Below, piece after piece: positions 8,050 through 16,064 of a DNA stretch of 44,084 bases. Origin of the DNA: an uncultured Oscillospiraceae bacterium. GTDB taxonomy: Bacteria > Bacillota > Clostridia > Oscillospirales > Oscillospiraceae. How positions within the stretch are numbered: position 1 is the stretch's first letter; every line of letters starts with the position of its first letter. The notes under the pieces were generated by a model, which had not been told where the DNA came from, searched no databases, and saw nothing but the letters and a program-made list of their open reading frames with translations. The translations under genes were made by a program, and so were the position numbers. The stretch is from assembly GCA_944385445.1 (NCBI GenBank), contig CALWXF010000018.1, forward strand, positions 1 to 44,084, read 5' to 3'.

Positions 8050-8063
8050 TTGACAAGAAATGA

Positions 8064-8090
8064 CCCCGGAGCTACGGCTCCGGGGTTTTG
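8064..8090 (+). terminator. Terminator of galKET
   Basis: CCCCGGAGC and GCTCCGGGG form a perfect 9-bp stem with a TACG loop, followed by TTTTG. Confidence 0.9.
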
Positions 8091-8170
8091 TTTGTCTATT
8101 GCAAGGCTGAGGGGAGCAGTCTGTGACGTAGACTGAGAGGTTATCCGTCTAACCGCCCAAGATTCCGGCT

Positions 8171-8692
8171 TGCCAGCCTGGTGGGGACGCTCCGCTGGGG
8201 CCCATTTTGACTGGCCAAAATGGGCGAAAAGCCACTTAGGGCGTTCCCCCCTAAGGACCTCCCTTGGGGTACCAGACTGGAACTGCGTCAATCCTATGGC
8301 CGACCCTGGCCCTGGTGGGGTCACATAGATGGCTTGGCAAGTCTATAGAAAGTATTCCCTTCTCTGTGAGACTGTGCCTCTGTTTCCAGGGCCTCACCCG
8401 GGTGTGCGGCGTTTCCGCCGCCGGGAGCCTGGCCCCCGATCGCTGGGAACAGCGGCTCACCAGAGTAAGGCCCTGGGGGTAGAAGGAGTAACTGCCAGAT
8501 AAGCAGGCACTTCACATGGATGTTCCACGCCACCCATGTGACATGAACTAGAACCAGGGCCGTAGAACGAACGGCGGAAAACCCAGCCCCGTACCGGCGG
8601 GGTGGATTCCACAAGGCGGGGGAAGACCCCGCCTTTGGCGGCCTTTGGTGACTTTCTGGCGGCAGAAAGTCACCCCAGCGGAGCGTCCCCCA
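8171..8692. repeat. Non-coding inverted-end element, copy A (candidate structured RNA)
   Basis: This about 522-bp block has complementary ends (TGGGGACGCTCCGCTGGGG at 8182-8200 pairs with 8673-8691) and is similar along its length to 14998-15535. Internal stems are at 8201-8224, 8235-8255, 8406-8421, 8441-8454 (GGAA loop), 8613-8635 and 8647-8674 (12 bp perfect). Several stems differ in sequence from copy B yet keep pairing. The stretch TAAGGCCCTGGGGGTAGAAG (8465-8484) is nearly identical in both copies and is unpaired in my reading. The outermost TGCCAG...CTGGC end is retained only on the left. It lies between the convergent galT and PiT genes. I see no protein gene inside. Confidence 0.75.
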
Positions 8693-8751
8693 TCGGGACG
8701 CAGGTTTGTGCCGAGACATGGATAAAAAATTGCCCACTCCAGTGTTTGCCC

Positions 8752-9681
8752 TTACCGCATTAAAAGGGCAAACACATATCCCAGCCCCATGCAGGCGGGG
8801 AAGGTGAGCACCCACACCAGCAGCAGCTGGGCCACCACCCCCGCCTTGGGATGGGGAGACGCCCCGCAGATGGCGGCCACCTTGGCGTGGCTGGTGGACA
8901 CGGGCAGGCCTAGTGCCGAGCACATTCCCAGCACCACCCCGGTGGCCAGATCGGCGGCCAGCCCCTGGGTGGGGGTGAGGTGGGCCAGCTCATGGCCGAT
9001 TTTCTCCACAATCCGCCGCCCCCCCAGCCCAGTGCCCAGGGCCATGGTGCAGGCAGTGAGGAGCAGCAGGGTGAGGGGCGGCCGGGCGGCGCTCACCCCC
9101 TGGGCCATGAGGAGCAGAGCCAGAAACTTCTGCCCGTCCTGGGCCCCGTGGAGAAAGGCGGTGAGGGCGGCAGCCCACCGCTGCCCCGCCATGGGGTTGT
9201 GGGGGATGCGGCCCAACCCACGGCACACCCCCCGGCCTGCCACCACCCCGGCGGGGAGGGAGAGCACCAGTCCCATCCCCACCGCCACCCAGGCGGAGGG
9301 CTGGATGTCTGCCCCCAGAGCCAGAGCAGCCCCGGATAGCCCCGCCAGCAGCGCATGGCTCTCGCTGGTGGGCAGGCCGAATCGCCATGCCGCTACCCCC
9401 CACAAGATGACCGCCAGCAACGCCCCGCACAGTCCCGCCTGGGTGTCCTGGGGGGAGGAGAAGCGCACCAGATTCTCCATGGTGGCAGCCACGGCGGGAA
9501 AGCACAGACAGGCCAGGGCCACCCCGGCAAAGTTGCACACCGCCGCCAGAGCCACAGCGGGGCGGAAGGACAGGGCCCCGGAGCCCACGGCGGTGGCAAT
9601 GGCGTTGGGGGCGTCGGTCCAGCCGTTGACCAGAATGACGCACAGCACCAGCAGAGGTAATAGGGCGGTGTGGATGGGCAT
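8752..9681 (-). CDS. PiT-family inorganic phosphate transporter
   Basis: This 309-aa integral membrane protein is likely to import inorganic phosphate with a cation. Both inverted PiT signatures are present: NGWTDAPNAIATAVGSGAL near the N terminus (19-37) and FLHGAQDGQKFLALLL in the second half. About nine hydrophobic segments can be read. The start at 9681 has a GGAGGAATG site. At 309 aa it is at the short end of the family. A PhoU-like (DUF47) partner gene, often found next to such transporters, is absent here. The ion specificity is inferred from the family. Confidence 0.85.
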   Translation of the reverse strand: MPIHTALLPLLVLCVILVNGWTDAPNAIATAVGSGALSFRPAVALAAVCNFAGVALACLCFPAVAATMENLVRFSSPQDTQAGLCGALLAVILWGVAAWRFGLPTSESHALLAGLSGAALALGADIQPSAWVAVGMGLVLSLPAGVVAGRGVCRGLGRIPHNPMAGQRWAAALTAFLHGAQDGQKFLALLLMAQGVSAARPPLTLLLLTACTMALGTGLGGRRIVEKIGHELAHLTPTQGLAADLATGVVLGMCSALGLPVSTSHAKVAAICGASPHPKAGVVAQLLLVWVLTFPACMGLGYVFALLMR

Positions 9682-9821
9682 GAGACATTCCTCCTTGCCA
9701 TACCCTATGGAGGGGACAAGAGGGGTATGAAAAAAGTTTTCAAAAAATTTTGAAAAAAAGAAGGGTTCCCGCCAGATATGGAGTATATAGTGATAGGAAA
9801 TATCGGATAGGAGGGGTGCTA

Positions 9822-10826
9822 ATGGAAATTCGTACCTACACCGAGGAGTTGGAGCGACAGATTCTCTCTCCCCGGGCCTGCCTGGCTGCCCAGTCCAAAG
9901 GGCGGGCGGTGGACATCCCTCCCTGTCCTATGCGCACCTGTTTCCAGCGGGATGTGGACCGGGTGGTGCATTCCAAGGCCTTTCGGCGGCTGATGCACAA
10001 GACCCAGGTATTCCTCCAGCCGGAGGGGGACCACTACCGCACCCGTATGACCCACACCCTGGAGGTGTCGGGAATTGCCCGGAGCATGGCCCGGGCGCTG
10101 CGCCTGAACCAGGACCTCACCGAGGCCGCCGCCCTGGCCCACGATTTGGGCCACACCCCCTTCGGCCACGCCGGAGAGCGGGCGCTGAGCCGGATGGTGG
10201 AGGGGGGCTTCCGCCACTATGAGCAGTCCCTGCGGGTGGTGGACCGCCTGGAGCGGGACGGCGCCGGGCTGAACCTGTGCTATGAGGTGCGGGACGGCAT
10301 CCTCCGCCACACCACCGGACCCATGGCTCAGACTCTGGAGGGGCAGCTGGTGCGCTACGCCGACAAAATCGCCTACATCAACCACGACATTGACGACGCC
10401 ATGCGGGGCGGCATCATCTATCCCACCGACATCCCGGTGCACATCTCTCAGGTGCTGGGCTTCACCCACGGGGAGCGCATTGAGCGGCTGGTGTTGGACA
10501 TTGTGGCCAATAGCCAGGAGGGGATGGAGATCCACCAGTCCCCGGAGGTGGCTCAGGCCATGGCAGAGCTGAAAAACTTCATGTTTGAGGCGGTGTACTT
10601 CAATCCCCGTGCCAAGGGGGAAGAGTCCAAGGCGGAGGACATGATCTGCCACATGTTTGAATACTACTGCCGTCACAACGACAAGCTCCCCTGTGAGTAC
10701 CAGGACATTCTGGTGCGGGAGGGCGTGGAGCGGGCGGTCACCGACTACATCGCCGGCATGAGCGACGCCTACGCCGTGGAGAAATTTGAAGAGCTTTTTA
10801 TTCCCATGCGGTGGATGATTAAATAA
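9822..10826 (+). CDS. dgt: Deoxyguanosinetriphosphate triphosphohydrolase-like HD protein
   Basis: This 334-aa HD-domain enzyme is expected to hydrolyse dNTPs to nucleosides and triphosphate. The metal-binding HD signature is in the run RMTHTLEVSGIARSMARAL followed by LAHDLGHTPFGHAGE; the N-terminal CFQRDVDRVVHSKAFRRL is typical of the family. I start at the ATG at 9822 (MEIRTYTEELE) because AGGAGGGG lies just upstream; an in-frame ATG at 9750 lies in AT-rich non-coding DNA. It sits upstream of dnaG and rpoD, a common order in Clostridia, but is separated from dnaG by a palindromic repeat. Confidence 0.93.
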   Translation: MEIRTYTEELERQILSPRACLAAQSKGRAVDIPPCPMRTCFQRDVDRVVHSKAFRRLMHKTQVFLQPEGDHYRTRMTHTLEVSGIARSMARALRLNQDLTEAAALAHDLGHTPFGHAGERALSRMVEGGFRHYEQSLRVVDRLERDGAGLNLCYEVRDGILRHTTGPMAQTLEGQLVRYADKIAYINHDIDDAMRGGIIYPTDIPVHISQVLGFTHGERIERLVLDIVANSQEGMEIHQSPEVAQAMAELKNFMFEAVYFNPRAKGEESKAEDMICHMFEYYCRHNDKLPCEYQDILVREGVERAVTDYIAGMSDAYAVEKFEELFIPMRWMIK

Positions 10827-10828
10827 CA

Positions 10829-10990
10829 GGGCAACACCGAACAATGTCGTCTGCGCACCTTTGCGGAAATTTTGCACCCATATTTCGTTGTGATTTTTTG
10901 CAATACACCAAGTATTGCTGCAAAACCACGCCTCATCTGGATGTAAAATTTACTCGCAAATCCGTCTTGCCGAATTGTGCGGTGTTACCC
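10829..10990. repeat. Imperfect 162-bp palindromic repeat (MITE-like)
   Basis: The left end (GGGCAACACCGAACAAT) and right end (ATTGTGCGGTGTTACCC) are complementary, and pairing continues inward with mismatches to a central hairpin GCAATAC/GTATTGC at 10900-10918. The block fills the dgt-dnaG gap and ends about 20 bp before the dnaG ribosome binding site. It has no coding capacity. I recall similar palindromes as dispersed repeats in gut Clostridia, but cannot verify copy number here. Confidence 0.7.
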
Positions 10991-11024
10991 GGATAAAATA
11001 TGGCTAGAATGGGGAGGTGAAACC

Positions 11025-12803
11025 ATGGCCATACCCGAACAATTTTTGGACGAGCTGAGCAGTCGGCTCAACATTGTGGACGTGGTGTCCGCCTACGTCC
11101 CCCTTACCCGGAAGGGTGGCAACTACTGGGGCCTGTGTCCCTTCCACCGGGAAAAGACCCCCTCCTTCTCCGTCAACGAGAGCAAGCAGATTTTCCACTG
11201 CTTCGGCTGCGGCAAGGGGGGCGGTGCGGTGCGCTTTGTCATGGAGATGGAGAATCTCCCCTTCCCCGAGGCGGTGCGCAAGCTGGCCGCCCAGGCTGGC
11301 ATGGAGGTGCCCGAGGACAACAGCAATGGGGCGTGGCGGGAAAAACGCCAGCGTATCCTGGAACTGAATAAAGAGGCCGCCCGGTTCTACCGCTCTATGC
11401 TCTCCCAGCCCGAAGGTGCCCAAGTGGCGGAGTATATCGCAAAAAAGCGGCGCATCAGCCCCAAGTTTTCCGCTCGCTTCGGCCTGGGGGCCGCCCCCAA
11501 CGCCTGGGATCGGCTCATTTTGGCCATGCGGGAGAAGGGGTACGACAAGGCCGACCTCATCGAGGCGGGCCTGGCCGTGGCGGGAAAAAACGGCGGCATC
11601 TATGACAAGTACCGAAACCGCCTCATGCTCCCGGTCATCGACGTGCGGGGCAACGTCATCGGCTTTACCAGCCGGGTGATGGACGACTCCACCCCCAAGT
11701 ATTTGAACACCCCGGAGACTGCCATCTTCAAAAAGCGGTCCATTTTATATGGCCTCAACTACGCCAAGAACACCAAACGGCCCAACATGATTCTGGTGGA
11801 GGGCAACATTGACGTCATCACCTTGCATCAGGCGGGCTTTGACAACACCATCGCCACCATGGGCACGGCCCTGACGGAAGAGCACATCCGCATTCTGGAA
11901 AAATACACCCAGGAGCTGGTGCTGTGCTACGACAACGACAACGCCGGCGTGGACGCCACCCAGCGGGCCATCGCTCTGCTGAAAGGCTCCCAGTTGCAAG
12001 TGAAGGTGCTCCAGCTGCCCCGTCGGCGGGACGACAGCGGCCAGCTGGTGAAGCAGGATGCGGACGATTTCATCAAGCACCAGGGACCCGAGGTATTTGA
12101 AGGACTGCTCCAGGGCTGCGCCAACTCGGTGGAGTACCGCCTGGAGGAGGTGCGCCAGGGCTTTGACTTGAGCCAGGACGACCAGAAGGCCCAGTACTTA
12201 CAGGCGGCGGCGGGTCTGGTAGCAGGGCTCAACAGCCCGGTGGAGCGGGAGATCTACGGAAACCGAGCCGCCGACGCCGCAGGCATCAGCCGGGAGGCCA
12301 TGGCCCAGGAGGTGGAGCAGCAGCGCCGCCAAAAGGGGCGACAGGCCCGGCGTCAGGAGGAGCGGCGCAGCCTCACCCCCACCCAGACGCTACAGCCCAA
12401 GCAGCGGGAGCTGCGCTACACCAATGTGCGTTCGGCCCTGGCGGAGGAGGGCGTGCTGCGGGTGGTGCTGCTGGATGGCAGCTACTTCAAGCAGCTCACG
12501 GACTTACAGGAGTCTGACTTCTCTGCCCCTCTGCTGGGGCGGGCCTATGGCCTGTTGCGGCAACGGTGGCAGGAGGGCAAGACAGTGAGCTTGGCGGCCC
12601 TGGACGGGGTGTTTACCCCCGAGGAGATGGACCACCTGTCCGCCGTGGTGCAGCAGCCCCAGCCCATGCACACGGCCCAGGCGGCCTTAGACGATTACAA
12701 GCAGACCATCCTTGCGCAACACCGCAAGGCAGACATACACAGCGGCCAGGACTTGGCCCAACTCAGAGACCTACTCAAACAGAAAAAAAGCTACGGAGGA
12801 TGA
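11025..12803 (+). CDS. dnaG: DNA primase
   Basis: This 592-aa primase makes RNA primers at the replication fork. The N-terminal zinc-binding domain has Cys38, His41, Cys59 and Cys62 (CPFH...CFGC). The catalytic core and TOPRIM fold follow, with VEGNIDVI near residue 257 and the acidic CYDNDNAG string near residue 303. The C-terminal third is the helicase-interacting region. The start at 11025 ([10 protein letters not shown]) follows GGGGAGGTG; a longer in-frame form from 10977 runs into the palindromic repeat. Its stop is 5 bp before the rpoD start, so the two genes are probably co-transcribed, the classic macromolecular-synthesis order. Confidence 0.95.
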
Positions 12804-12808
12804 AAACC

Positions 12809-14122
12809 ATGAGTGAAAAGAAGAAAAACGGCAAGAAGCCCGAGGTGGCTTCCGGCATTAGCATGGTCAGCAAGGAGAAGTTCGAGAGCGCCAAGGCCGA
12901 GCTGGTGAAGCTGGTGGAGGGCATCCAGGGCGGTGAACGCCTGGTGGAGCTGGTGGACGCCGGCTACAAGAAGGGCAAGCTGTCCTCCGGTGAGATGATG
13001 GAAGTGCTGGAGTCCATGAACCTGGAGAGCGAGCAGATGGACAAGATGTACGACATCATGGAGAACCTGGGCGTGGACGCCGCCGGGGAGGAGGACCTGA
13101 TGCCCATCCTCAGCGAGGAGGACCTGCTGCCCCCCGCCGAGGAGATGGAGGACTTCAACGAGGAGGAGCTGGTGGACCCCAACACCCTGGTGGACTCCTT
13201 CGCCATCGACGACCCCGTGCGCATGTACCTCAAGGAGATCGGTAAGGTAGACCTGCTCTCTCCCGACCAGGAGATCGAGCTGGCCCAGGCCATGGCCGCC
13301 GGCAACCTGGCCAAGGAGCAGAAGGCTGAGCTGGAGAAGACCGGGGAGGAGCTGCCCGCCGAGGTGCTCCAGGAGCTCAGCAAGAGCATCAAGGCCGGGG
13401 AGCGGGCCAAGCAGAAGCTGGCCGAGGCCAACCTGCGTCTGGTGGTGTCCATCGCCAAGCGGTATGTGGGCCGTGGTATGCTGTTCCTGGATCTGATTCA
13501 GGAGGGTAACCTGGGCCTCATTAAGGCCGTGGAGAAGTTCGACTACACCAAGGGCTACAAGTTCTCTACCTACGCCACCTGGTGGATTCGTCAGGCCATC
13601 ACCCGTGCCATCGCCGACCAGGCCCGTACCATCCGCATCCCCGTGCACATGGTGGAGACCATCAACAAGGTCATCCGGGTCAACCGTCAGCTGCTCCAGG
13701 AGCTGGGACACGATCCCACCCCCGAGGAGACCGCCGCTGAGATGAACATGCCTGTGGAGAAGGTGCGGGAGATCTTGAAGATTGCCCAGGAGCCCGTCTC
13801 CCTGGAGACCCCCATCGGCGAGGAGGAGGACAGCCACCTGGGCGACTTCATCCCCGACGAGGATGCCTCCGAGCCCTCCGAGGCCGCCTCTTTCACCCTG
13901 CTGAAGGAGCAGCTGGTGGACGTGCTGTCCACCCTCACCCCCCGAGAGGAGAAGGTGCTCAAGCTGCGCTTCGGCATTGAGGACGGCCGCACCCGCACCC
14001 TGGAGGAAGTGGGCAAGGAGTTCAACGTCACCCGGGAACGTATCCGTCAGATCGAGGCCAAGGCCCTGCGCAAGCTGCGCCACCCCAGCCGCTCCAAGAA
14101 GCTCAAGGACTTTTTGAGCTAA
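12809..14122 (+). CDS. rpoD: RNA polymerase primary sigma factor
   Basis: This 437-aa sigma-70 protein directs RNA polymerase to vegetative promoters. Region 1.1 is seen in the N-terminal 80 residues, region 1.2 at [11 protein letters not shown], region 2 at [20 protein letters not shown] and [15 protein letters not shown], region 3 after [13 protein letters not shown], and region 4 at [20 protein letters not shown]. The start at 12809 (MSEKKK) is 9 nt from GGAGG; an ATG at 12800 overlapping the dnaG stop is possible but too close to that site. The terminator at 14139 follows directly. The vegetative promoters listed here match what this factor reads. Confidence 0.95.
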
Positions 14123-14138
14123 TTCAAATTACAAAAAG

Positions 14139-14185
14139 CCCCGCCGTCTCCGCCCAAGTTTTGGGCAGAGATGGCGGGGTTTTTG
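14139..14185 (+). terminator. Terminator of dnaG-rpoD
   Basis: CCCCGCCGTCTC pairs with GAGATGGCGGGG (one G-T pair), with a second inner stem CGCCCA/TGGGC, followed by TTTTTG. The minus-strand SLOG gene ends just beyond at 14190. Confidence 0.85.
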
Positions 14186-14189
14186 TATG

Positions 14190-14630
14190 CTATGGGGCTG
14201 TGACACCGGGGACATAGGAGAGAATGAGTTTCTTTTTCTGCCTGGCATAGCGTAGGGTAGCGGCAGCTCCGCCCCAGTTGTGGAGAACGTAAGACACCAC
14301 CACCTGGGAGGCGTCCACCATCCACTGGTTGCGCTTGGGAATGGCAAGGTGAGGTGGAACCGACTCCAGAGGCGGATAGACGCTATAGTCATAGCCGGAG
14401 CCGTCCATGTTCCGGTTGAGATAGGGCCGAACCAGCACCAGCTTTATGTCTGGATGGGTCTCTTTCTGTTTGCGCAGGACCTGGGCCGCCAACTCGTCGA
14501 ACGCGCCGTACCCGCCCAGATAAAAGGTGGTGGCGCCCTGCTCAATTAGGGCCTGTGAGACTTCAAACAGCCAGTCTTGCACAGATTTCGGATCTGAAAT
14601 TTTGGCATGTCCACAAAAGGTTACGTTCAT
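14190..14630 (-). CDS. SLOG-superfamily (DUF1273/YpsA-like) protein
   Basis: This 146-aa soluble protein has the SLOG nucleotide-binding pattern: N-terminal MNVTFCGHAKI, then TTFYLGGYGAFDELA (glycine-rich loop followed by Asp) and KRNQWMVDASQVVVSYV with a later GGAAATLRYA. SLOG proteins bind nucleotide-related ligands, and some act in stress or phage-defence circuits; the ligand here is unknown. The start at 14630 has an ideal GAGGAGGTG site; frames extending upstream would cross the promoter. It is transcribed away from a small HTH gene, with a 28-bp palindrome between, and ends beside the rpoD terminator. I think the HTH protein controls it (inference). Confidence 0.75.
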   Translation of the reverse strand: MNVTFCGHAKISDPKSVQDWLFEVSQALIEQGATTFYLGGYGAFDELAAQVLRKQKETHPDIKLVLVRPYLNRNMDGSGYDYSVYPPLESVPPHLAIPKRNQWMVDASQVVVSYVLHNWGGAAATLRYARQKKKLILSYVPGVTAP

Positions 14631-14644
14631 ATAAATCACCTCCT

Positions 14645-14672
14645 CATTATAGTGATTATAATCACTATAATG
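14645..14672. promoter_or_regulatory. Perfect 28-bp palindrome, candidate operator
   Basis: The 14-base arm beginning CATTATAGTGATTA is followed immediately by its exact reverse complement. The palindrome covers the -10 and most of the spacer of the SLOG-gene promoter and touches the -35 zone of the divergent HTH gene, so one bound dimer could act on both. It is AT-only apart from four G/C pairs, in sharp contrast with the GC-rich surroundings. Confidence 0.75.
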
Positions 14673-14683
14673 AAAAGTTTCAA
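14655..14683 (-). promoter_or_regulatory. Promoter of the SLOG gene
   Basis: On the minus strand TTGAAA (14683-14678), a 17-bp spacer and TATAAT (14660-14655) give a near-perfect vegetative promoter, with the start codon about 25 bp downstream of the -10. Confidence 0.8.
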
Positions 14684-14715
14684 GCCCCATATAATAGCCG
14701 CAGTGGGGTGATAAA

Positions 14716-14934
14716 ATGCCAATTTCATTTAGGCCTATGCGGCAATTCATGGAGGACAATCACATATCCTATTATCGTTTGGCCAATGCTGGCATGGATG
14801 CCCAGACGTTACAGAGAATTCGACACGACAAGCCGATTACCACCGAGACTCTGGGAAAGTTGTGTTTCCTGTTGCAGTGTCAGCCGGGGGACTTGATGGA
14901 GTATATTCGGGATGAATCGGATGCACCCAAGTAG
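14716..14934 (+). CDS. Small XRE/Cro-type helix-turn-helix regulator
   Basis: This 72-aa protein is essentially one Cro/CI-type DNA-binding domain: FMEDNHISYYRLANAGMD, AQTLQRIRHDKPITTETL and GKLCFLLQCQPGDLMEYI follow the five-helix pattern of the HTH_26/YozG kind. It probably binds the adjacent 28-bp palindrome and represses the divergent SLOG gene, and possibly itself (inference). A TATAAT at 14690-14695 could be its -10, but I see no matching -35. A GTGGGGTG sequence precedes the ATG. It is followed by a terminator and then by repeat copy B. Confidence 0.75.
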   Translation: MPISFRPMRQFMEDNHISYYRLANAGMDAQTLQRIRHDKPITTETLGKLCFLLQCQPGDLMEYIRDESDAPK

Positions 14935-14949
14935 AATATGGTTGATGAT

Positions 14950-14986
14950 GAGCCACACATGTGAATTGCATGGTGGCTCTTTTTCT
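14950..14986 (+). terminator. Terminator of the small HTH gene
   Basis: GAGCCAC (14950-14956) pairs with GTGGCTC (14973-14979), with ACAT/ATG pairing inside, followed by TTTTTC. Confidence 0.7.
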
Positions 14987-14997
14987 TGGAATAGGCT

Positions 14998-15535
14998 TGC
15001 CAGCCTGGCGGGGACGCTCCCCGCTGGGGGTTCCTTTTGCTCGGTCAAAAGGAACCAAAACCCGCTTAGGGCGTTCCCCCCTAAGTACCCCCCTGGGGTA
15101 CTTGGCTGGGAATGCGTCAAGTTTGTGTTCGGCCCGTGACCCTTGCTGTGGCTCCTGTCACTACCACCATACCAGACTACCATGGCAGCTGGCCCTATAG
15201 CTGGGTGATTTCCATATCCGGGCCTACCCCGGAGAAGCGGCGTTCCCGCCGCCGGGAGCCAGGCCTCCGGCAACTGGGAACAGTTGCACACCAGGGTAAG
15301 GTCCTGGGGGTAGAAGAACATGCTAACATAGAAGTAAGTGCCGTCCATAGGACTGGTAAGCCATCTTATGTGACCCCACCGGGCCAAGGGCCGAAAAGCG
15401 GACGGCGCACACTCCACCCCGTATTGGCGGGGTGGATTCCAAAGGCGGGGAAAGGCCCCGCCTTTGGCGGGTTTTCGTCCATTTTGCCCGGTCAAAATGG
15501 ACCCCAGCGGAGCGCGTCCCCCTTGCCAGGCTGGC
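14998..15535. repeat. Non-coding inverted-end element, copy B (candidate structured RNA)
   Basis: This about 538-bp block is the more complete copy. The left end (from TGCCAGCCTGGCGGGGACG at 14998) is complementary to the right end (15502-15535, finishing TGCCAGGCTGGCA). Internal stems are at 15031-15054, 15065-15085, 15237-15252, 15271-15286 (CAACTG-GGAA-CAGTTG), 15414-15435, 15442-15464 and 15477-15502. The order and spacing match copy A at 8171-8692 and the orientation is the same. It lies between a plus-strand and a minus-strand gene that converge. Short open frames inside are not conserved between the copies and look spurious. Confidence 0.8.
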
Positions 15536-15560
15536 ATATTGAAAAGTCATGATGAATCAA

Positions 15561-15597
15561 AAAGACAGACGGTGGAACCCTTCCACTGTCTGTCTTT
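15561..15597 (-). terminator. Terminator, probably bidirectional
   Basis: AAAGACAGACGGTGGAA pairs with TTCCACTGTCTGTCTTT around a CCC loop, giving a 17-bp stem with one G-T pair. On the minus strand it is followed by TTTTTG-like sequence and ends the membrane-protein gene; on the plus strand it closes off copy B. Confidence 0.85.
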
Positions 15598-15602
15598 GTA
15601 TC

Positions 15603-16064
15603 TTATTCTTCGTCCCAGTCCTCTTCTTCTTCCAACTCAGGGTGGAAGGAGCGGAACTTGGAGAGCATGTACTCCACCGCTTCATCGTCTATGAGGTTGT
15701 AGAAGAAGCGGACGGGAGGCTGGCCCGGTAGCTGATAGTAAAAGTACAGGGCGTTGGTTCCTCCGCTAAAAGCGGTCCAGGCCTTTTCCAGCTCACTGTA
15801 GCGGTGATAACGCCCATTTCCTGGTTTGGTCTGATGATAAAAGCCGTTTTCGCCCACCAGGAACTTTACGATGAACCGCCGATACAGCCCCATCAACGTC
15901 ATCACCAGCATGAACAGAGCGAACAGGCCCACAAAGAACACCGCTGGATTTTTGGCCAAAGCCAGCGCAATGGCAACGCCGCCAGACACGGCCAGGCCAA
16001 TCAGGGGGAATATTACACTCAAGCTGTCTTTCCCAATTTGATATACCCACTTGTCTTCTTGCAT
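15603..16064 (-). CDS. Hypothetical membrane protein with two N-terminal helices
   Basis: This 153-aa protein of unknown function has two adjacent hydrophobic segments (about residues 16-35 and 40-61), joined by a short turn, and a soluble C-terminal domain containing VGENGFYHQT, ALYFYYQLPGQPP and FYNLIDDEAVEYML. The tail is very acidic (ELEEEEDWDEE). The layout resembles YcxB-like domain proteins, but I would not assign it. It starts 27 bp after the pseudouridine synthase gene with a GGGAGGAA site, so the two form an operon, and a strong terminator follows. Confidence 0.75.
   Translation of the reverse strand: MQEDKWVYQIGKDSLSVIFPLIGLAVSGGVAIALALAKNPAVFFVGLFALFMLVMTLMGLYRRFIVKFLVGENGFYHQTKPGNGRYHRYSELEKAWTAFSGGTNALYFYYQLPGQPPVRFFYNLIDDEAVEYMLSKFRSFHPELEEEEDWDEE

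What the first reader, a model, noticed from the sequence alone, without database searches (positions are those of the whole stretch)
8171..15535. Two diverged copies of an unrecognised 520-540-bp non-coding element with complementary ends
8171-8692 and 14998-15535 share order, spacing and orientation of sequence blocks over their full length, yet encode no conserved protein. Their ends are long complementary arms (left arm with GGGGACGCTCC, right arm with the reverse), so each could fold into a closed structure. Both copies occupy gaps between convergent genes. This looks like a dispersed family, either a large structured RNA or a non-autonomous mobile element. I do not recognise it.
Basis: seen in the sequence. 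Interest (0 to 1): 0.8.

Follow-up and report, generated by a model that had tools for sequence, protein, structure and literature searches.

The report
Palindromic DNA repeat with pseudoknotted ends
Between the genes of a gut bacterium sit dozens of copies of a roughly 520-letter, almost mirror-symmetric DNA element with no recognised gene of its own, which looks like a passively spread mobile repeat and whose ends keep a knotted fold with a perfection that points to folded DNA more than to a working RNA.

Summary
The two copies (80.2% identical over 494 aligned columns) belong to a family with at least 60 places (39 full, 13 left-half, 8 right-half; 25.3 kb) in the 2.15-Mb draft genome. It is amplified in part of one genus (Pseudoflavonifractor/Enterenecus records); weak structural matches occur in other genera of the family. 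No Rfam match lies on the elements. Anatomy: GGGGACGCT..GCTGGGG terminal inverted repeats, then at each end a perfect hairpin whose loop mostly pairs with the linker beside it (a pseudoknot). Loop and linker co-vary: 115 of 145 against a permuted mean of 49.6; other genera 11 of 13 distinct arms against 5.3. In 31 left arms 81 of 682 pair cells changed on both sides, none by a one-sided G-U step. G-T and A-C mismatches are about equal (259:218), unlike RNase P (35:6). I favour a non-autonomous palindromic mobile DNA element over a structured RNA. Many sites are inherited; one 466-bp block is 99.6% identical at two places. The mobilising enzyme is unknown; Y1 transposase was found in 2 of the 7 genomes with strong matches.

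The parts
8167..8692 (+). Copy 1 of the element (left half about 8167-8430, right half about 8431-8692)
   Evidence: 80.2% identical to copy 2; at least 60 related places in the genome
8167..8178 (+). Outer end word GGCTTGCCAGCC, shared left terminus of many copies
   Evidence: left boundary of a 99.6% identical 466-bp block at two other loci
8183..8200 (+). Left terminal inverted repeat GGGGACGCTCCGCTGGGG
8200..8225 (+). Left hairpin P1 (10-bp perfect stem, loop ACTGGC 8210-8215)
   Evidence: family alignment
8226..8234 (+). Linker GAAAA + GCCA; GCCA (8231-8234) can pair with loop TGGC (8212-8215): pseudoknot
   Evidence: read; family evidence
8235..8255 (+). Hairpin P2 (CTTAGGG/CCCTAAG)
   Evidence: family alignment
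8613..8635 (+). Right-half hairpin AAGGCGGGG/CCCCGCCTT
   Evidence: family alignment
8647..8674 (+). Right hairpin P1' (12-bp perfect stem, loop GCGG); belongs to the minority loop type (CCGC read inward) without a 4-base loop-linker match
   Evidence: family
8673..8690 (-). Right terminal inverted repeat, perfect reverse complement of 8183-8200
14994..15536 (+). Copy 2 of the element
15010..15029 (+). Left terminal inverted repeat GGGGACGCTCCCCGCTGGGG
15029..15056 (+). Left hairpin P1 (11-bp perfect stem, loop CTCGGT; a loop type without a 4-base linker match)
15061..15064 (+). Linker word CCCG
   Evidence: family
15441..15464 (+). Right-half hairpin (AAAGGCGGGG/CCCCGCCTTT)
15468..15490 (+). 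Right pseudoknot: CGGG (15468-15471) can pair with loop bases CCCG (15487-15490) of hairpin 15477-15502
   Evidence: read; hairpin
15477..15502 (+). Right hairpin P1' (10-bp perfect stem)
15502..15521 (-). Right terminal inverted repeat (CCCCAGCGGAGCGCGTCCCC on the + strand)

Best explanation
A non-autonomous palindromic mobile DNA element (MITE/REPIN-like in behaviour), built as an inverted pair of two diverged half-units, each about 265 bp and rich in hairpins. When the DNA is single-stranded or extruded, each end folds into a hairpin whose loop pairs with the adjacent linker (a pseudoknot). An enzyme supplied in trans, not identified here, recognises these ends and copies or moves the unit into intergenic DNA next to gene ends; half-units can stand alone. 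Shown: family, copy number, terminal repeats, half-units, co-varying loop and linker, near-equal G-T and A-C mismatches, location mostly next to gene ends, different occupants at the same site in different species, one near-identical 466-bp block at two sites. Inferred: mobility itself, that folded DNA is what an enzyme sees, and that the 466-bp block moved by transposition rather than by recombination between repeats.
For: At least 60 places in the genome; 81 terminal-repeat matches against 0 for the control. Half-units alone: 13 left, 8 right; two own left-halves sit at the same site in another species (L029/L133, L059/L100). End hairpins in 95 full copies: Watson-Crick in 97.5% and 98.2% of cells, 178 and 215 compensatory cells. 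31 left arms: 81 two-sided and no one-sided changes in 682 cells; covariation score 0.360, 0 of 500 shuffles as high, slid controls 0.010-0.081. Loop-linker match: 115/145 against permuted mean 49.6, max 64 of 2000; distinct combinations 46/55 against 15.1, max 25. Other genera: 15/17 against mean 6.9, max 13 of 5000; after removing repeats 11/13 against 5.3, reached by 1 of 5000. G-T 259 against A-C 218 in the 115 pairs predicted on both strands; RNase P of the genus 35 against 6 (30 sequences) or 29 against 9 (20 sequences). Tandem copies 8 along and 10 against transcription. The site of L025 is nearly empty in L104 and holds other repeats in L178, L143, L102. 31 orthologous pairs, 8 (at 5 sites) with the element inverted, those only 81.1-88.8% identical. 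466-bp block 99.6% identical at C8 and C13 with different sequence outside both ends.
Against: No transposase carrying these ends was found: of 23 neighbouring +/- terminal-repeat pairs in the own draft genome, 20 are 131-922 bp apart and the other three (4.4, 14.9, 18.6 kb) start in copies already listed. No target-site duplication and no clean empty site was seen. Many orthologous copies are inherited in place, up to 98.3% identical. The block could be recombination between repeats. Equal folding energy on the two strands is expected of a near-palindrome and is no independent evidence. Some long-range helices keep a modest G-T excess (e.g. 46 against 24). In one search the count of further pair types does not exceed shuffles (304 of 500 as high), and cells count sequences, not events. 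The outer boundary varies, so the exact mobile unit is uncertain. Own genome 91% complete.
Confidence: 0.55

Rival explanations
1. A multi-copy structured non-coding RNA (ROOL/GOLLD-like in size), whose pseudoknots are RNA folds.
For: Large stable folds; co-varying pseudoknot with an A-rich linker, a topology common in RNA (recalled). Some long-range helices with a modest G-T excess.
Against: 0 Rfam matches at gathering in the window, none overlapping the elements at E<=1. G-T and A-C near equal in shared pairs against 35:6 for RNase P. No one-sided G-U steps in 682 cells. No orientation bias to tandem neighbours. 21 of 60 places are half-units.
Confidence: 0.2
2. A host cis-acting DNA site repeated at gene ends (as BIMEs are proposed to bind gyrase or shape the nucleoid; recalled), spread slowly by recombination and kept because it is useful.
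For: In 30 of 32 copies at least one neighbouring gene points at the element; many sites inherited.
Against: High copy only in part of one genus; sites lost, swapped or replaced between species; no function tested.
Confidence: 0.13
3. Stem perfection is mainly a by-product of replication template switching in quasi-palindromes, with no selection on the fold; the elements are dead repeats.
For: Perfect stems with two-sided changes and no intermediates fit template switching, which PMC8794818 proposes for RNA stems (abstract and passages seen).
Against: Does not simply explain loop-linker complementarity across genera with different words. Loop inversion, which it can produce, is rare here: two pairs of mutually reverse-complementary words among 43 loop words in 139 hairpins.
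Confidence: 0.12

Closest known systems
REPINs / REP elements (PMC3116915, PMC3733652; abstracts and section lists seen)
   Same: High-copy extragenic palindromic DNA, pairs of units in inverted orientation, located mainly between tandem and convergent genes and downstream of coding regions.
   Different: REP units are 20-40 bp; here half-units are about 265 bp with several hairpins, terminal inverted repeats and a loop-linker pseudoknot. No Y1 (RAYT-type) transposase was found in 5 of the 7 genomes with strong BLAST matches, own genome included.
MITEs (general knowledge)
   Same: Short, non-coding, terminal inverted repeats, many copies.
   Different: No target-site duplication and no parent transposon found; both halves carry conserved internal hairpins.
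ERIC / IRU repeats (recalled; a literature search listed one paper that I did not open)
   Same: Intergenic imperfect palindromes.
   Different: ERIC is about 127 bp (recalled); no sequence relation tested.
Large bacterial structured RNAs: ROOL, GOLLD, OLE, HEARO (Rfam)
   Same: Size and fold complexity.
   Different: No Rfam match on the elements; G-T and A-C mismatches near equal; tens of copies per genome.

Membership tests
REPIN / REP | Two palindromic units in inverted orientation, extragenic, high copy | tested here: met
REPIN / REP | Unit of 20-40 bp | tested here: not met
   Half-units about 265 bp; shortest form seen about 90-130 bp.
REPIN / REP | Unpaired GTAG or CGTC tag at one end of the palindrome | not tested
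   The letters CGTC occur inside the right terminal repeat; no scan for tags was made.
REPIN / REP | Associated REP-type tyrosine (Y1) transposase | tested here: not met
   PF01797: none in G000, G009, G018, G020, G024; one weak match with a stop in G010; two in G001. Own genome 91% complete.
MITE of a DDE transposon | Terminal inverted repeats, no recognised coding capacity | tested here: met
MITE of a DDE transposon | Target-site duplication of fixed length | tested here: inconclusive
   None seen at the sites compared, but no clean empty site was available.
MITE of a DDE transposon | Autonomous parent with the same ends | tested here: inconclusive
   20 of 23 neighbouring +/- end pairs in the own draft genome are 131-922 bp apart, the other three run from listed copies over 4.4-18.6 kb; exact pattern only; other genomes not searched this way.
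Large structured RNAs in Rfam (ROOL, GOLLD, OLE, HEARO, group II introns) | Match to the family covariance model | tested here: not met
   0 at gathering in the whole window; 4 matches at E<=1 in 8050-15640, none over either element.
Large structured RNAs in Rfam (ROOL, GOLLD, OLE, HEARO, group II introns) | Transcription | not testable with these tools
   No expression data.
IS91-type (Y2) non-autonomous relatives | Y2 transposase present | tested here: inconclusive
   PF04986: 0 of 7 genomes, but the control genomes did not ring either.

The most novel reading that the evidence does not exclude
A family-wide class of mobile DNA whose ends are recognised as single-stranded DNA pseudoknots (hairpin loop paired with the neighbouring linker) by an enzyme outside the known HuH Y1 group, with paired half-units acting as exchangeable modules.
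Probability: 0.2. Interest if true: 0.85.

Novelty: new variant of a known kind. Interest (0 to 1): 0.6.

Why it matters
These repeats fill about 1.2% of a small gut-bacterial draft genome (25.3 kb of 2.15 Mb) and match nothing in the RNA and protein family libraries searched. Their arms give a clean natural test of how a fold is kept: two-sided changes with no one-sided steps, and a loop-linker pairing that persists across genera with new words. If the pseudoknot is what a mobilising enzyme reads, that would be a new recognition principle.

Tried and rejected
Structured RNA: tested by Rfam, mismatch symmetry with an RNase P control (on 20 of the 30 fetched loci, chosen by me without a fixed rule and without the own genome's copy; on all 30), and gene orientation. 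On re-check two points weakened my first wording. The G-T excess of RNase P on its own predicted strand (320:19) is mirrored on the other strand (41:339), so that ratio does not discriminate; the pairs predicted on both strands do (35:6). Equal energies on both strands are expected of a near-palindrome (RNase P -142.0 and -101.9). I therefore moved the RNA rival from 0.15 to 0.2 and the main reading from 0.6 to 0.55.

Protein-coding: 0 families for four ORFs. Y1 transposase, Y2 transposase (control did not ring), reverse transcriptase (none in the own genome, present in the 6 others searched): no consistent partner; other transposase families were not searched. Phages and plasmids: copy 2 has no match at E<=1e-5; core word not found in viral contigs; the terminal-repeat pattern gave 43 viral contigs with one match each, read as chance and not studied. 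First idea that some copies were flipped internally was an error: genome-search loci keep contig orientation (corrected). The first gene-orientation count was discarded because its codon model was trained partly on antisense ORFs; one search replaces it after Pfam checks, but it misses dnaG in the window, and in 5 of the 32 copies a called gene touches the element, which makes those calls doubtful. Literature searches on Pseudoflavonifractor, Oscillospiraceae, Faecalibacterium and Flavonifractor with repeat words gave nothing relevant; 'not in print' holds only for those searches of that library.
Full report
OBSERVATION. The two stretches are real, co-oriented and 80.2% identical over 494 aligned columns; score 255 against at most 12 in 200 two-base-block shuffles. 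Both have terminal inverted repeats: in copy 1 GGGGACGCTCCGCTGGGG at 8183-8200 is repeated inverted at 8673-8690, 18 of 18. Both fold better than their shuffles (z -7.0 and -11.1, 100 each). Four overlapping ORFs match no Pfam or NCBIfam family at E<=1.

COPY NUMBER AND ANATOMY. DNA searches of the own genome with each copy scored 40 of 91 and 40 of 86 first-look candidates, so counts are lower bounds. I merged 46 of the 109 and 24 of the 70 matches listed; those left out are repeats of the same places, reverse-strand matches inside them, or short end matches. The result is 60 places: 39 full, 13 left-half, 8 right-half, 25.3 kb. An exact terminal-repeat pattern has 81 matches against 0 for its reversed control. 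The element is two diverged half-units in inverted orientation. Other arrangements occur: left arm with inverted left arm (L118, L122) and right part with inverted right part (L145) (my reading of the match coordinates); short forms of about 200 and 90 bp (L104/L089, L166) and 131 bp (L218). The same half sits at the same site in two species (L029/L133, L059/L100). Outside the terminal repeats, 15 of 32 copies have half of a smaller palindromic repeat pointing at them, in most cases 46-61 bases away, against 2 hits in 35 kb of background.

PSEUDOKNOT. Next to each terminal repeat stands a hairpin with a perfect stem of about 10-13 bp, then an A-rich linker, then in most copies four bases complementary to the loop. 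In 145 distinct arms from the fetched loci (found by a pattern that fixes part of the stem and the A-run), 115 have an exact 4-base loop-linker match; permuted pairings give mean 49.6, maximum 64 in 2000; by distinct combinations 46 of 55 against 15.1, maximum 25. Exceptions include loop types CGGT and CCGC; the window's copy 1 right arm and copy 2 left arm are among them. In 17 hairpins from seven other genomes of the family, chosen through the right-arm model (which does not contain the loop-linker pairing), 15 match; after removing repeats 11 of 13, against mean 5.3, reached by 1 of 5000 permutations.

COVARIATION. On 31 aligned left arms (31 of 34 that I picked from 95 full copies), P1, pseudoknot and P2 have 97.8% paired cells, 81 of 682 cells with both sides changed, 15 unpaired, none with one side changed. 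0 of 500 shuffles reach the covariation score; slid controls give 0.010-0.081 against 0.360; the number of further pair types is not above shuffles (304 of 500). The structure was read from these sequences, which favours it over the slid versions, and cells count sequences, not events. In all 95 copies the two end hairpins are Watson-Crick in 97.5% and 98.2% of cells; the main long-range helices are at about 84-92%, several inner ones lower.

RNA OR DNA. In the 115 pairs predicted on both strands G-T and A-C mismatches are 259 and 218. The same measure on RNase P of the genus gives 35 and 6 (30 sequences, 49 pairs, median identity 0.81) or 29 and 9 (20 sequences). Ratios within the fold of one strand do not discriminate: element 851:369 on plus and 515:1042 on minus, RNase P 320:19 and 41:339. 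Equal fold energy on the two strands (-332.0, -329.8) is expected of a near-palindrome. With no Rfam match on the elements, no one-sided G-U step in the arms and no orientation bias (8 against 10 tandem copies), I read the fold as kept at the DNA level, with RNA as the main rival.

CONTEXT AND EVOLUTION. Of 32 full copies (of 39), 12 lie between convergent genes, 18 between tandem genes, 2 between divergent ones (own codon model trained on 16 Pfam-supported window genes; 5 copies have a doubtful call touching the element). Many sites are shared between species: 31 orthologous pairs of full copies, 23 in the same orientation (79.9-98.3% identical) and 8 inverted at 5 sites (81.1-88.8%), so inverted ones look like replacement by another copy rather than a flip. 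One site (L025) is almost empty in L104 (34 bp between the flank matches) and filled with other repeats in L178, L143 and L102. A 466-bp block starting at AGGCTTGCCAGCC is 99.6% identical at two loci with different outside sequence: recent copying by some route.

DISTRIBUTION. BLAST at E<=1e-10 finds it in 7 of 99 genomes, own included, all one genus (42 genomes). The right-arm covariance model matches 29 of 42 genus genomes at E<=1e-3, with 91 matches from 91 scored candidates in the own genome, and 30 of 200 family genomes at E<=1e-5, in 22 of 106 genera, own included. E-values are rough (short calibration); outside the genus the listed scores are 36-58 bits. The fetched examples share the hairpin-linker-loop logic.

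MECHANISM AND PARTNER. Best reading: a non-autonomous palindromic mobile DNA element, its folded ends read by a trans-acting enzyme that I could not identify. Y1 transposase was not found in five of the seven genomes with strong BLAST matches. No target duplication and no gene-bearing parent were found. The nearest known kind is REP/REPIN DNA (PMC3116915 and PMC3733652, abstracts read), which it resembles in layout and location but not in unit size or transposase.

Noticed in passing
L168:5640-5760; L178:3926-4071; flanks of many copies, e.g. window 8100-8165: A smaller (~120 bp) palindromic repeat, also an inverted pair of two-hairpin units (..GACGGAGGGATTG / GACTGAGGGGTTG..), stands alone or flanks the large element at near-fixed distances.
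   Followed up: partly
L143:1906-2103; L145:7169-7393; L102:3816-4012: Another ~200 bp intergenic repeat with AATGAAGAATG-like ends occupies the same sites in other species.
   Followed up: no
L052:724-1189 and L053:1572-2037 (minus): 466-bp block 99.6% identical at two loci of the own genome, starting at AGGCTTGCCAGCC and ending at GAGGGGTTG.
   Followed up: partly
L120:6524-6834: The site of element L016 in another species holds a quite different ~300 bp insert with GTGCTATCCAGAGCGGATAGCAC repeated at both ends.
   Followed up: no
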